From IMG/VR virus record IMGVR_UViG_3300037882_001114, positions 1 through 25,916 of that record: 25,916 bases of DNA; one strand, 5' to 3'. The position numbers and the translations under genes were made by a program. Within the stretch, counting starts at the first letter, position 1; every line of letters begins with the position of its first letter. Below the pieces are notes generated by a model. That model saw only the letters and a list, made by a program, of their open reading frames with translations. It did not search any database and had not been told where the DNA came from. The DNA is from a virus. Shown here one piece after another: positions 4,412 through 25,470 of this stretch.

Positions 4412-4732
4412 ATGAATCCTAAATTCCAGATTTTTCAGGACTCCAAGAAGCAATACCGCTGGCGCCGTCGCGCTAGGAACGGAAAGATTACAGCGGACGG
4501 CTCTGAGGGATATTTCAACAAGGCTGGCGTGAAGCGCGCAATTGCGCGGCATGTTGTCGACATTGCGATCTGCGGGTTCAGCGAGAAGACAGACCTTCGA
4601 ACGGGGAGGCGCACGCCCTACACAACGGCGCCCATCGAAGACCTCACGCTGAGACCCAAGCCCAAGCCCAAGCCCAAGCCCAAGCCCAAGCCCGCGAAGA
4701 AACGCAAGGCCGTGAAGAGGAAGAAACGATGA
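4412..4732 (+). CDS. DUF1508-domain protein with Lys-Pro repeat tail
   Basis: The 106-residue product starts at ATG 4412 behind an AGGAG ribosome binding site. Residues about 5-47 (FQIFQDSKKQYRWRRRARNG and then SEGYFNKAG) match the small beta-rich DUF1508/YegP domain. The rest is basic and contains six PK dipeptides followed by a Lys/Arg-rich end. This suits an extended, DNA- or RNA-binding tail, but no function is shown. The tail's DNA is a tandem hexanucleotide repeat. Confidence 0.75.
   Translation: MNPKFQIFQDSKKQYRWRRRARNGKITADGSEGYFNKAGVKRAIARHVVDIAICGFSEKTDLRTGRRTPYTTAPIEDLTLRPKPKPKPKPKPKPAKKRKAVKRKKR
4655..4690 (+). repeat. Hexanucleotide tandem repeat (CCCAAG)x6
   Basis: Six exact CCCAAG copies lie in frame and encode (Pro-Lys)6. 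A change of one unit keeps the frame, so copy-number variation by replication slippage is plausible. Confidence 0.95.
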
Positions 4733-19889: not shown

Positions 19890-20312
19890 ATGGCAGCTTC
19901 TAGAACAGGCTATGGGACCGAGAATTCGGTCGAACATGTCCTCGCGAAAAAAGTCGTGTTCGGGGACATCGGCGATGGCGATCTTGTCATCGGCACATTG
20001 TCGAATGCGGTCGTCGTCGACACGTTCTGCGTCGTCGAGACTGTGTTCAATGCGGGAACGTCGTGCGTTCTCGACATCGGAACGGCCGGAGACCCTGACG
20101 GGTTTGCGACCGATTACGACGTCTTGGCTTCCGTCGGCTCTATTGCAAGAGATACGGCGATTGCGACATCGAACGACTGCGTCATCACGACAGACACCAA
20201 TATCGTCTGCTCGCTTGTCGCGGTCGGCACGGCGGCGACGACGGGCTCTGCCTGGGTCGGGGTGAAATTCATCCCGATGCAGGCGTTCAAGAGTTCCGGC
20301 GTCATCGGCTAA
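19890..20312 (+). CDS. Probable head decoration or minor capsid protein
   Basis: The 140-residue product starts at ATG 19890 behind AGGGAGGA. It is almost entirely short strands rich in Val, Thr and Gly (GDGDLVIGTLSNAVVVDTFC, then DTNIVCSLVAVGTAAT), as expected for a small beta-sandwich. Its place right after the major capsid gene suggests a capsid decoration or stabilising protein. No family is recognised with certainty. Confidence 0.6.
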   Translation: MAASRTGYGTENSVEHVLAKKVVFGDIGDGDLVIGTLSNAVVVDTFCVVETVFNAGTSCVLDIGTAGDPDGFATDYDVLASVGSIARDTAIATSNDCVITTDTNIVCSLVAVGTAATTGSAWVGVKFIPMQAFKSSGVIG

Positions 20313-21091
20313 TGACTGACATGGGCGCGCTTCGTTATTCCAAGGTTGCTCTGTGTACGCCTTGCTATGACGGGCGCGCCCATATCGGGCACAACCGCTC
20401 TATCGGCGCGTTTTTAGGAACATTGAAGCGTCTCGATTGCGAAGGGCGCTACTTCGACGCTCAGCACGGGGCGAATCTTCCAAGGCTCAGGAACACGCTT
20501 GTCGCAGAGGCCCTATCGTGGGGCGCGGAAACGATCCTATGGGTCGATTCCGATGTGGCGTTCACGCCGCATGACGCGCTTCCCTTATTGCGGGCGCGCG
20601 AGGCGTGCGTCGGGGCCGCGATCCAAAGACGGCCGATCGCAGAAAACGAGCCGCCCTCCGTGACGTTTCGATTGATGGAGAACGGCGGGGTCAATTACCG
20701 ATCCGACGGGCTTGTCGAGGTCGGGCTTATCGGCACCGCGTTTGCGAAAACGGATCGCATCGTCTTTGAGAAAATGGGCGAGGCTGGAATAGCGCTAAGG
20801 CTCGAGAACGAAGGATGCTCGGCCGCGGCGCTTCCCTTCCTGCGCAGCTACTTCTGGTACGATCCGGAAGATACGGGCCGCGTCTGCGCTAAGACCGGCG
20901 AGAAACTCTACCGCGATCCGGGCGAGGACTACACGTTTTTCCGGCGCGCTTCGGCGCTCGGCTTCAAATCCTTCATCCATCCGACGATCAGGCCGGTCCA
21001 CCACGAAGGACGCATGCGGCTTGAGAAGAACTTCTGGGACCTCCACGGGGCGCAGATCGAGGCGCAGCTAAAGCCTCACGCCGCCGAATAA
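20312..21091 (+). CDS. GT-A type glycosyltransferase
   Basis: The 259-residue product starts at ATG 20312 in a TAATG junction. It opens with a strand (SKVALCTPCYDGRAH), has ARN-like LPRLRNTLVAEAL, and a DxD metal and sugar-nucleotide motif in LWVDSDVAF (D79-S80-D81). A late GEDYTFFRRASALGFKSFIH (about 204-223) followed by PVHHEG resembles the acceptor-side acidic and His motifs of GT-A enzymes. It is located within the capsid genes, so glycosylation of a virion protein is an attractive but unproven role; host-surface or DNA modification are alternatives. Confidence 0.75.
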   Translation: MTDMGALRYSKVALCTPCYDGRAHIGHNRSIGAFLGTLKRLDCEGRYFDAQHGANLPRLRNTLVAEALSWGAETILWVDSDVAFTPHDALPLLRAREACVGAAIQRRPIAENEPPSVTFRLMENGGVNYRSDGLVEVGLIGTAFAKTDRIVFEKMGEAGIALRLENEGCSAAALPFLRSYFWYDPEDTGRVCAKTGEKLYRDPGEDYTFFRRASALGFKSFIHPTIRPVHHEGRMRLEKNFWDLHGAQIEAQLKPHAAE

Positions 21092-21756: not shown

Positions 21757-22629
21757 ATGACGACCCTCGCAACCATGGCGACGAATATCCTGACGCACGA
21801 GCGGCGCACGACAGACACGGGCGCCGTGACTGCGGTCGATCTCTTTATTCAGGACGCAATCCGGCACTACGCCGGAAAGCGCTGGTGGGCGACGGAAGCG
21901 GACGGGCTGATCTTCACGACCGTCGCCGACACCGAGTACTATTCGGTCCCGGCCCCGTTGCGCGTCATCGACACCGTCTCGACATCGCAGAGCGTCGTTG
22001 TGAGGAAGACCATCACGGCGATTACAAAAGCAAATCCCGCCGTGGTCACATCGGCGGCGCACGGTATTGCCGACGGCGAGATCATACGCATCGTCGAAGC
22101 GGGAGGCATGACCGAGGTCAACGGCGTCCAGTTCACCGTCGACAATCCGGCGACGAACACCTTCGAACTTTCAGGGATCGATTCCTCCGCCTATACGACC
22201 TACACGTCCGGCGGGGCCGCCTATGTCACGCCTTCGACGGTCTACGCGCTAGACCCGATCAGCAATCTGCAACTGGAGGCGTGCTATTTTCAGCCGGAGC
22301 GCCAGTCCACAGGCCAGCCCGACGTATGGGCGATGCACAAGGACAGAATAAGGCTCTGGCCGATCCCGGACGGGACTTACGAAGTCAGGACCCAAGGCTA
22401 CGGCGCGACGCTCCCGATCTCGACAAGCCTCGATACGAGCCCTTGGTCGAACGAGCTTTACTCGCTGATCTATTCAAGAGCGAGGGCGCTCTTTGCTCGC
22501 GACTACCGTCAAGACATCGAAGCCTATCAGCTCCACACAGCAGCAGAGCGCGACACCTGGGCGGCGCTTGAGTCTGAATCCGTGAAACGCACTGTCACGC
22601 GACGCTTCAAAAGCTGGGGGATTGTTTGA
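21757..22629 (+). CDS. Head-tail adaptor (P22 gp4-like) with inserted domain
   Basis: The 290-residue product starts at ATG 21757. The N-terminus (AVDLFIQDAIRHYAGKRWWA) and the later RIRLWPIPDGTYEVRTQGYG plus YSLIYSRARALFARDYRQD fit P22 gp4-like adaptors, which attach below the portal and seal the channel. Residues about 85-157 (NPAVVTSAAHGIADGEIIRI, GMTEVNGVQFTVDNPATNTF) look like an inserted small beta domain common in phage proteins and related to the FCCH-type barrel. The insertion lengthens the adaptor well beyond the 166 residues of P22 gp4. Confidence 0.75.
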   Translation: MTTLATMATNILTHERRTTDTGAVTAVDLFIQDAIRHYAGKRWWATEADGLIFTTVADTEYYSVPAPLRVIDTVSTSQSVVVRKTITAITKANPAVVTSAAHGIADGEIIRIVEAGGMTEVNGVQFTVDNPATNTFELSGIDSSAYTTYTSGGAAYVTPSTVYALDPISNLQLEACYFQPERQSTGQPDVWAMHKDRIRLWPIPDGTYEVRTQGYGATLPISTSLDTSPWSNELYSLIYSRARALFARDYRQDIEAYQLHTAAERDTWAALESESVKRTVTRRFKSWGIV

Positions 22630-22645
22630 AACGTAGGAGAAACTT

Positions 22646-22834
22646 ATGACGTATCAAGAGAGCGACGAGTACTGGGCTGCGAAGAAGCGCGCCAGAAAGA
22701 TAGCTGAAGTGCAGTCAGACTATTTTAAGGGCCTGCTTAAGTTCGCGCATTCCGAAAACATTCTTGATACGGCGCTTGTCGATGCGGGCATTCCGCGCAC
22801 GCGCACAGCGTCTGAAAGCCGGGCGATTGTTTGA
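22646..22834 (+). CDS. Small hypothetical protein
   Basis: The 62-residue product starts at ATG 22646 behind TAGGAGAAAC. It is helical and charged (YWAAKKRARKIAEVQSDYFK, then LLKFAHSENILDTALVDAG). It ends in AIV; the adaptor upstream ends in GIV. No family is recognised. It lies between the adaptor and the tail-hub region, so it may be a minor virion or assembly protein. Confidence 0.55.
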   Translation: MTYQESDEYWAAKKRARKIAEVQSDYFKGLLKFAHSENILDTALVDAGIPRTRTASESRAIV

Positions 22835-22997: not shown

Positions 22998-24056
22998 ATG
23001 CCCCGCTCCTCAACCTTCATCTTCGGCCCTTGGGCGCCGGATAACCCGTCATGGGGCGGGTCCCGGCTTGGCTCCGGCGGCGAGATTATTCTTGAAGACG
23101 CGCATGGGTGCTTCTGGGCGTCTACCCCCTATGGCGGGGGATACAGGCCTCTGAGCGGGCCCGGAACGACAATTGCGCTCTTTGAAGACACCGGCGGGGA
23201 AGGCGGCGGCGGGGGAGGAGAGGACCCGCCATTCCCAGTTCTATATACGCCGAACACCATGCCGGCTTCGGCTTGCGCCAAGGGTTGGTTCGACGATCAG
23301 GACGCGTCGACCATCGACGTAGAGGCGGGCTCTCCAGGCGGGGAAGAAATTTCGGAGTGGCGCAACAAGATCACCGACGCGACGGACCACGCAATCCCGC
23401 GCGACTTCAACAACCCCGATCCATGGACGTCAGGGCCTACGTACAATTCCGGGCAGATGATGTTCACGGCGCTGAATTCATCTGTGCTCGATATCCAGCT
23501 TCCGGCGCAGCACACCGGCGCCAATCTCTGGTGCATCATCGTCGGACGCATCGGCCCGTTCTCCGGCGGACCAGACAACGTCTTTGTCGAGTTCGGCAAT
23601 GACGGCGAGCTAGCGCAGTCAAACGCCGATTCCTTGACCATCATGCGCAACGGAACGAATTACCAGATCGCGGTCGACAGAAGCGGAGAAACCGACGCTC
23701 TTTCCGACACGGTTCCGAACGCGACAGACGATGACAGGCCGGGCAAGTCGGAATTCATGCTGTTGGTTCGCTGCGACGGAACGAACAAGATCGTGCGCAC
23801 GAACGGCGTCTTGTCTGACACCGAGACATCGACGACGGCGTTTGACATCACTCGGGTTCGCCTCGGCGCCCGCGGCGACGATAACTCCAGCTACGATCTC
23901 AAGGGCACATTGCGGGCCATCGTCTACGGCACATGCGCCTTGACGGACGAAGACGTCGAGAAGCTGGAAGGCTTCATGGCGCACTGGCGCGGCAAGCCGA
24001 CTGAATTCCTGCCGACGACGCATACGCATTACTCCTCCGCCCCGATGACGAGCTAG
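22998..24056 (+). CDS. Lectin-domain protein carrying a tail-hub-like N-terminus
   Basis: The 352-residue product starts at ATG 22998 behind GCGGAGA. Residues 1-60 (IFGPWAPDNPSWGG and later YGGGYRPLSGPGTT) match the usual opening of gp10-like tail-hub proteins, which read FGP-x-x-PD-x-P ... GGYRP. A glycine run (about 66-74) follows. Residues about 81-345 resemble a concanavalin A/laminin-G-like jelly roll: DDQDASTID, ISEWRNKITDATD, LWCIIVGRIGPFSGG, and the closing LRAIVYGTCALTDEDVEKLE. Such domains bind sugars, so it could be a receptor-binding part of the tail. The next gene is the rest of the hub. Confidence 0.7.
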   Translation: MPRSSTFIFGPWAPDNPSWGGSRLGSGGEIILEDAHGCFWASTPYGGGYRPLSGPGTTIALFEDTGGEGGGGGGEDPPFPVLYTPNTMPASACAKGWFDDQDASTIDVEAGSPGGEEISEWRNKITDATDHAIPRDFNNPDPWTSGPTYNSGQMMFTALNSSVLDIQLPAQHTGANLWCIIVGRIGPFSGGPDNVFVEFGNDGELAQSNADSLTIMRNGTNYQIAVDRSGETDALSDTVPNATDDDRPGKSEFMLLVRCDGTNKIVRTNGVLSDTETSTTAFDITRVRLGARGDDNSSYDLKGTLRAIVYGTCALTDEDVEKLEGFMAHWRGKPTEFLPTTHTHYSSAPMTS

Positions 24057-24060
24057 CGCC

Positions 24061-25470
24061 ATGGTCGAAGTCAACGAACCGTCCGGAGACGGGGTGTTCT
24101 GGTCGGCGAACGGCGACGGGTACTTCTTCGTCGGCGACTACACGCGCATCTGGATGCTGAACGAAGCGCAAGACATTTTCGACGACGTGACGAAAGCGTC
24201 GGCGACCTACGAAGCCTCAAAGCTCGTTCCCTGGCAATTCGTCCAATACGGGGACAGGGTCACAGCGGTTTCGAAAAACCAGACGACGCAATATTTCGAC
24301 CTCGGCGATTCAACGACGTTTGACGATCTTGCAGGCTCTCCCCCGAAGGCAAGATGCGGGGCGCAGGTTCGAGACTTCGTCATGGTCGGCTCGACGACGG
24401 AAGCGGGAACGAGTTTCAACACGCGCGTCCGCTGGTGCGGCTTTGACGACACCGAGGACTGGACGACAGACCCCGGCGGGACGCAAGCCGATTTCCAGGA
24501 CATGGATGCAGCCTATGGCGAAGTCATCGGGATTGTCGGCGGCGAATTCGCGACCGTGTTTCAGCAAAGAGCGATCTCGCGCTTCACCTATGCCGGCCCG
24601 CCGTTCATTTTTCAGCGTGACACGGTCGAGATCAACAGGGGCGCGATTGCAACCCTCTCTATCGTCCCGGTTGGACGGCTGATCTTCTACTATTCGCAGG
24701 AGGGGTTCTTTGCTTTCGACGGGGCGTCGTCGACGCCTGTGTCGCAGAACATGAACCGCTGGATCAAGAACAAGATCACCGACGATACGGCGCAGCGGAT
24801 GAGATCGGCGCACTACCCGGACATCCGCTGCATCATGTGGTCGTGGCCCTATGACCCGACAGGGGCTGATCGCCCGACATCGTCCTTAAGGATTATTTTC
24901 AATTACGACGTTGGGCGCTGGACCTGGGATTATTCGGCGACCGCGCGCTGGTATTGGACCGTTGCCCCCTCTGAAACGCTTTACATCGACGATCCCGTTT
25001 ATGGCGAACTACTCATCGATGATCTCGACGATCCGATTGACTCGCAGGACGGCAGGCAAACGCGCGTCGTCGCCTGGAATTACGACGGAGTCGATTGGTC
25101 CTTGAAAGAACTCGACGGCGGCGATGTCGAGGCAAGGCTCGAAACCGTAAAGCTCGATCTATCTCCGGGACGGCGCACCATGATCACGTCGGCGCGCGTC
25201 ATCGGGAACCTGACATCGGCGACGACAATGCGCGTCGCGGCGCAATCGTCGGCCGCATACCCCGCAAACACGCTCGCCTCTGATTCAGGCGTTGCAGATT
25301 TCGGACAGAACGCCTTCGAAGACGGGTTCGTCCCGTTGATGGCGGAGGGGCGCTATCACGGGATCATGACGAAATGGGACGGCGGGATTGGAACCACGAC
25401 CGGCGATCTTGAGGAACTGACGGTCGTTCAAGGGATCGAGATCGAGTGGACACCGCTCGGCAAGTTCTGA
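24061..25470 (+). CDS. Tail hub protein (P22 gp10-like), lacking its usual N-terminus
   Basis: The 469-residue product has the beta-propeller repeats of gp10-like hub proteins: DGYFFVGDYTRIWMLNE, WQFVQYGDRVTAVSKNQTTQ, PPKARCGAQVRDFVMVGST, GIVGGEFATVFQQRAISRFT, VPVGRLIFYYSQEGFFAFDG. It starts at ATG 24061, four bases after the upstream TAG and in a different frame, with no clear Shine-Dalgarno sequence. The usual FGP...GGYRP opening of about 60 residues is missing and is instead found at the head of the upstream gene. The hub closes the channel under the adaptor. Confidence 0.8.
   Translation: MVEVNEPSGDGVFWSANGDGYFFVGDYTRIWMLNEAQDIFDDVTKASATYEASKLVPWQFVQYGDRVTAVSKNQTTQYFDLGDSTTFDDLAGSPPKARCGAQVRDFVMVGSTTEAGTSFNTRVRWCGFDDTEDWTTDPGGTQADFQDMDAAYGEVIGIVGGEFATVFQQRAISRFTYAGPPFIFQRDTVEINRGAIATLSIVPVGRLIFYYSQEGFFAFDGASSTPVSQNMNRWIKNKITDDTAQRMRSAHYPDIRCIMWSWPYDPTGADRPTSSLRIIFNYDVGRWTWDYSATARWYWTVAPSETLYIDDPVYGELLIDDLDDPIDSQDGRQTRVVAWNYDGVDWSLKELDGGDVEARLETVKLDLSPGRRTMITSARVIGNLTSATTMRVAAQSSAAYPANTLASDSGVADFGQNAFEDGFVPLMAEGRYHGIMTKWDGGIGTTTGDLEELTVVQGIEIEWTPLGKF

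What the first reader, a model, noticed from the sequence alone, without database searches (positions are those of the whole stretch)
22998..25470. Tail hub appears split, with its N-terminus heading a lectin-domain gene
Seen: the gene at 22998 opens with FGPWAPDNPSWGG and GGGYRP, then a glycine run, then a laminin-G/concanavalin A-like domain. The next gene (24061) is a gp10-like propeller that lacks this same opening. Known: gp10-like hub proteins normally carry FGP-x-x-PD-x-P and GGYRP in the first 60 residues of the same chain as the propeller. Inference: a lectin-coding segment was inserted after residue 60 of an ancestral hub gene and the rest now restarts separately. The N-terminal strand could then dock in the hub and tether a lectin to the tail tip, a new way to display a receptor-binding domain.
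Basis: partly seen in the sequence, partly recalled or inferred. Interest (0 to 1): 0.8.

Follow-up and report, generated by a model that had tools for sequence, protein, structure and literature searches.

The report
Split tail nozzle carrying a lectin
In this uncultured phage the tail-nozzle (hub) gene carries an inserted sugar-binding-type domain and is cut in two right after it, so the first strands of the nozzle now head a separate lectin protein; a sister phage keeps the same parts in one chain, and whether the two pieces re-join in the virion is still inferred.

Summary
ORF 22998-24056 starts with a nozzle/hub N-terminus (FGPWAPDNP...GGYRP), then a Gly run, then a concanavalin-A/LamG-like domain. 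ORF 24061-25470 is the rest of the nozzle (phrog_3287, E 4e-44) without that N-terminus. Of 96 distinct nozzle ORFs fetched, 93 carry the N-terminal motif in the same chain, 39-86 residues before the propeller, except one with a 330-residue gap. Two of the three automatic misses are variant or more distant N-termini; only the window's propeller has none.

The 330-residue exception decides the case. IMG/VR contig 3300032277_000133 (L111) is a syntenic sister phage with one uninterrupted ORF: N-terminus (54% identical), lectin (40%), propeller (55%). So the lectin was inserted into a nozzle gene and is tolerated in one chain. The split is a separate, later step: a +1 frame change (net 4 nt, 'TAGC') exactly at the lectin/propeller junction, with stop TAG at 24054 and ATG at 24061.

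Most likely the two chains re-associate, the N-terminal strands completing the platform domain and tethering the lectin. That is inference. The main rival is an assembly indel. No second split example was found. New variant of a known kind (compare evolved Dit).

The parts
21757..22629 (+). gp4-like tail adaptor gene just upstream (290 aa, with an inserted ~70-aa module)
   Evidence: phrog_584 and phrog_10775 tail proteins; aligned to the G001 adaptor, which lacks the insert
22998..24056 (+). P0001, 352 aa: nozzle N-terminus + Gly linker + ConA/LamG-like lectin; good Shine-Dalgarno (CGGAG)
22998..23168 (+). nozzle/hub N-terminal segment (residues 1-57), homologous to the first ~41 residues of ordinary nozzles; [quoted passage not shown]
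   Evidence: platform assignment from SU10 nozzle (PMC9509320), inferred
23193..23222 (+). glycine-rich linker GGEGGGGGGE (residues 66-75), absent from single-chain sister L111
23250..24035 (+). inserted concanavalin-A/LamG-like lectin domain (residues 85-346)
   Evidence: 40% identical to the L111 lectin over residues 81-352; L111 copy hits PF13385 at E 0.0017, below cut-off; Foldseek jelly-roll/LamG matches
24054..24060 (+). junction: stop TAG (24054-24056) and CGCC before the restart; net +4 nt relative to the L111 frame, a +1 frame change exactly at the lectin/propeller boundary
24061..25470 (+). P0002, 469 aa: nozzle propeller plus C-terminal part, lacking the N-terminal segment
   Evidence: phrog_3287 E 4e-44 from profile position 66; the family profile matches the VP1 nozzle gp16 and Pa223 tail chains

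Best explanation
[quoted passage not shown] That much is shown by alignment and by the single-chain sister in L111. In this phage the gene was then cut exactly at the lectin/propeller junction, so it makes two proteins: N-terminal strands + Gly linker + lectin (P0001), and propeller + C-terminal platform (P0002), the second translated by restart or coupling at ATG 24061, 4 nt after the P0001 stop. Inferred: the P0001 N-terminal strands add to the platform domain formed by the C-terminal part of P0002, completing the nozzle without a covalent bond and holding up to six lectins around the tail near the adaptor-nozzle joint, where they could help the phage bind a surface glycan.
For: Single-chain orthologue with the same domain order in a syntenic sister phage. 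The N-terminal HMM score lies far above shuffles. Motif-to-propeller distance is 39-86 aa in all nozzles with the motif except L111 at 330. The frame break falls at the domain boundary: only 2-3% of random indel sites in the L111 gene give a stop within 1 codon and a restart within 12 nt, and none of those lies within 10 codons of the junction. Portal and major head protein match nearly their full PHROG profiles, so the contig is not generally frameshifted. Nozzle fold: Foldseek 9nwi, 8zkk, SU10 7z4f, P22 gp10 8eap. N-terminal strands are predicted ordered in the joined chain (pLDDT 69 for residues 1-10, 68 for 31-40) and disordered in P0001 alone (35 and 44). In SU10 the platform domain is built from an N-terminal and a C-terminal part, the propeller being entered from the N-terminal part at blade 1 (PMC9509320).
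Against: One contig only; no second split relative was found. The break is a net 4-nt difference that an assembly error could cause. The start at 24061 has a weak Shine-Dalgarno (dG -2.2), although several abutting genes here are equally weak. The joined model has modest confidence (mean pLDDT 64.6, N-terminal strands about 60-69), and no inter-chain prediction, PAE or coordinates were available. Sugar binding by the domain is untested.
Confidence: 0.55

Rival explanations
1. Sequencing or assembly indel: the real gene is one ~820-aa lectin-bearing nozzle, as in L111, and the split is an artefact. The lectin insertion into the nozzle stays real.
For: A single net 4-nt difference separates the two states; the sister is uninterrupted; the window is one metagenome-derived contig.
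Against: The break sits precisely at the domain boundary with an immediate stop and restart, which random indels rarely produce. Portal and major head genes in the contig are intact. A 4-nt insertion is not a typical short-read error (general knowledge).
Confidence: 0.3
2. The gene is decaying: a real frameshift broke the nozzle and this genome is defective.
For: A tail nozzle is expected to be needed for infection, and losing its N-terminal strands could inactivate it.
Against: No other broken structural gene was seen. Both halves keep full-length open frames with no further stops or indels. The break is at the least harmful point of the gene.
Confidence: 0.08
3. Programmed +1 frameshift at AGC-TAG-C joins the two frames in a fraction of translations, giving both a lectin-only protein and a full nozzle.
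For: The frame change is +1 and occurs at a stop codon; joined translation gives a continuous 823-residue chain.
Against: No known slippery motif: AGC to GCT re-pairing is poor and there is no CTT-TGA-C-like site (general knowledge). Stimulators were not searched for. An ATG lies 4 nt after the stop.
Confidence: 0.05

Closest known systems
P22 gp10 / podophage tail nozzle family (VP1 gp16, Pa223, SU10 gp17, Sf6 gp8)
   Same: Propeller homologous by profile and by fold; gene directly downstream of the adaptor; N-terminal motif present in the locus.
   Different: A lectin domain is inserted after the N-terminal strands, and the chain is cut after it, so the N-terminus is on another polypeptide.
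L111 / IMGVR_UViG_3300032277_000133 nozzle
   Same: Same order N-terminus-lectin-propeller, 54/40/55% identical; syntenic virion block.
   Different: One uninterrupted ORF (contig ends before its C-terminus); no Gly run.
Evolved Dit proteins of lactococcal siphophages (PMC6669499)
   Same: A carbohydrate-binding module inserted in a core tail-hub protein to add host binding.
   Different: Dit is an unrelated fold in long-tailed phages; the insertion is covalent, not split.
Phage ConA/LamG-like domains (PF13385, phrog_8174, phrog_10356)
   Same: Jelly-roll fold; phrog_10356 matches the end of the L111 domain, E 5e-9.
   Different: In the window and L111 it sits inside a nozzle gene rather than in a fibre or minor tail gene.

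Membership tests
P22 gp10-like tail nozzle/hub | Propeller homologous to nozzle proteins | tested here: met
   phrog_3287 E 4e-44; family profile vs 8zkk/8zkm E ~1e-31 and 9nwi E 1e-26
P22 gp10-like tail nozzle/hub | Fold matches solved nozzles | tested here: met
   Foldseek E 1e-21 to 4e-12 against 9nwi, 8zkk, 7z4f, 8eap
P22 gp10-like tail nozzle/hub | N-terminal (platform) strands on the same chain as the propeller | tested here: not met
   P0002 lacks them and its frame closes 4 codons upstream; they are on P0001. So the gene pair, not P0002 alone, equals the family member
P22 gp10-like tail nozzle/hub | Gene next to the tail adaptor | tested here: met
   adaptor 21757-22629 precedes it, with one small ORF at 22646-22834 between
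P22 gp10-like tail nozzle/hub | Hexamer bound to adaptor, closed by needle | not testable with these tools
   needs structure or biochemistry
ConA/LamG-like lectin | Profile match above curated cut-off | tested here: inconclusive
   PF13385 hit only by the L111 copy, 18.9 bits vs 27.6 cut-off
ConA/LamG-like lectin | Jelly-roll fold | tested here: met
   Foldseek matches to galectin-8, CBM40 and LamG jelly-rolls, E 1e-5 to 1e-10, TM 0.3-0.6, lectin part of the model mostly pLDDT 50-82
ConA/LamG-like lectin | Binds a carbohydrate | not testable with these tools
   no assay
Evolved Dit | Dit fold in a siphophage tail | tested here: not met
   the host protein of the insert is a nozzle propeller; comparison is by analogy only

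The most novel reading that the evidence does not exclude
A naturally two-chain tail nozzle: the first platform strands of the hub are supplied in trans by a lectin protein (strand complementation), so the phage tethers receptor-binding lectins to its tail through a piece of the nozzle itself.
Probability: 0.4. Interest if true: 0.75.

Novelty: new variant of a known kind. Interest (0 to 1): 0.5.

Why it matters
It shows a lectin inserted in a podophage nozzle, the counterpart of the evolved Dit proteins of long-tailed phages, and the sister single-chain form gives a clear order of events (insertion first, split second). If the two-chain form is real, the nozzle N-terminal strands would be a natural docking tag for attaching domains to a tail.

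Tried and rejected
First HMM from 14 nozzles without the FGPW type gave no significant score for P0001, so homology could not be claimed from it; settled by L111 and the larger HMM. tblastn of P0001 against 50,697 phages: no match. Single-protein and profile scans of viral and genome collections found no second member of the clade except L111; L134 was a chance DNA match. The 15-row hub alignment had no stretch conserved enough to scan with. Default MAFFT of 47 sequences misaligned GYxP to the end of the lectin; a subset and E-INS-i fixed it. Lectin matches to clostridial neurotoxin binding domains were judged generic jelly-roll similarity (8-14% identity), not kinship. Programmed frameshifting judged unlikely.

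Full report
What is there. The window is a 25,916-base virus record with an ordinary short-tailed-phage virion block: terminase, portal, major head protein, a decoration-like gene, a gp4-like adaptor, then the two ORFs of the finding. P0001 (22998-24056) opens with FGPWAPDNPSWGG, reaches GGYRP at residues 47-51, has a glycine run (66-75) and then a beta-rich domain. P0002 (24061-25470) is a nozzle propeller (phrog_3287, E 4e-44, starting at profile position 66 of 524).

Is the N-terminus really a hub N-terminus? Full-length nozzles from named phages begin with (F)GxWxPDxP...NVxP...GYxP about 45 residues before the point where P0002 starts. A scan for FGPW-x-PD-x-P in viral contigs returned 99 stretches, and the large majority of the ORFs holding it are nozzles by an independent propeller HMM. 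In 96 distinct nozzle ORFs, 93 carry the motif; all but one have it 39-86 residues before the propeller match. The three ORFs without a motif call are the window, L012 (which has a variant, AEYAPD, missed by the regular expression) and L017 (a more distant nozzle with a different N-terminus). An HMM of 45 nozzle N-termini gives P0001 27.6 bits against at most 11.0 in 20,000 shuffles. An earlier HMM lacking the FGPW-type sequences was not significant (5.1 bits), so on its own the sequence match is only as good as the second HMM, which is partly selected for the motif.

The decisive relative. L111 (IMGVR_UViG_3300032277_000133, 18,861 bases) holds one uninterrupted ORF: FGPWAPDHPAYGGNRLNGGGQVFLEDAKG...GGYRPIIAPGT, then a lectin, then the propeller. 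Against the window it is 54% identical in the N-terminus, 40% in the lectin and 55% in the propeller, collinear to the last codon of P0001 and from the first codon of P0002. Its contig is syntenic (portal 54%, major head protein 56%). The reverse (an ancestral split re-fused in L111) is not formally excluded with two members.

The split. L111 reads ...SVPYTN-A-IVTANEP...; the window reads ...SAPMTS-TAG-C-GCC-ATG GTC GAA GTC AAC GAA CCG.... The frame change is +1 (net 4 nt). In the L111 gene only 2-3% of all single-site indels of three kinds give a stop within one codon and a restart codon within 12 nt, and none of those lies within ten codons of the junction. This argues for a real, tolerated split but does not exclude an assembly error: there is no second split copy, near-identical records may be hidden by the tools, and raw reads could not be seen. 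The start at 24061 has a weak Shine-Dalgarno, as do other genes here that abut their upstream neighbour.

How it would work. The family profile matches the solved nozzles of Vibrio phage VP1 and Pseudomonas phage Pa223, and the joined-chain model matches these plus SU10 and P22 gp10. In SU10 the platform domain, which contacts the adaptor, is made from an N-terminal and a C-terminal part, and the propeller is entered from the N-terminal part at blade 1 (PMC9509320). By analogy the first 57 residues of P0001 are platform strands whose partner strands lie in the C-terminal part of P0002. AlphaFold2 orders these residues in the joined chain (pLDDT 69 for 1-10, 68 for 31-40, with strands 3-8, 32-36, 38-41) but not in P0001 alone (35 and 44, no strand before 38). 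Both runs held hub N-terminal sequences, though not an identical set of rows, so the difference most likely comes from the presence of the rest of the nozzle. This is suggestive only: pLDDT is modest and no contact map was available. The lectin has a jelly-roll fold similar to galectins, CBM40 and phage LamG domains; ligand unknown.

Known or new. Nozzle proteins, LamG domains and binding-module insertion in tail hubs (evolved Dit, PMC6669499) are all known. A lectin inserted at this point of a podophage nozzle was seen here only in this two-member clade. A two-chain nozzle would be new, and is the part that needs proof.

Noticed in passing
window 21757-22629: The adaptor carries a ~70-aa insert (TITAITKANPAVVTSAAHG...YTSGGAAY) absent from the sister phage adaptor; a similar module is inserted in the nozzle of L031 and, more loosely, L007.
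   Followed up: partly
window 20312-21091: A glycosyltransferase-like gene (phrog_1574; weak phrog_34859) sits inside the virion block between the decoration-like gene and 21117; no counterpart seen in the corresponding stretch of sister G001.
   Followed up: partly
window 22646-22834: Small ORF (62 aa, strong Shine-Dalgarno) followed by about 160 nt without a called gene, between adaptor and P0001; in the sister phage the nozzle start overlaps the adaptor stop.
   Followed up: no
window 23193-23222: The glycine run is present only in the split version and absent from single-chain L111, as if a flexible linker came with the split.
   Followed up: no
L002 3144-3854 and L007 2699-3529: Genes just upstream of the nozzle begin with LD-x-LD repeats like those in the nozzle itself (LDSLDNLKASLDDLTLSLDS), possibly another piece of nozzle reused in a neighbouring protein.
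   Followed up: no
L006 3845-5554: Bradyrhizobium phage ppBeUSDA76-2 nozzle is an intact ORF but has no annotated feature in the record.
   Followed up: no
window 4412-4732: ORF ending in a (PK)n repeat.
   Followed up: no
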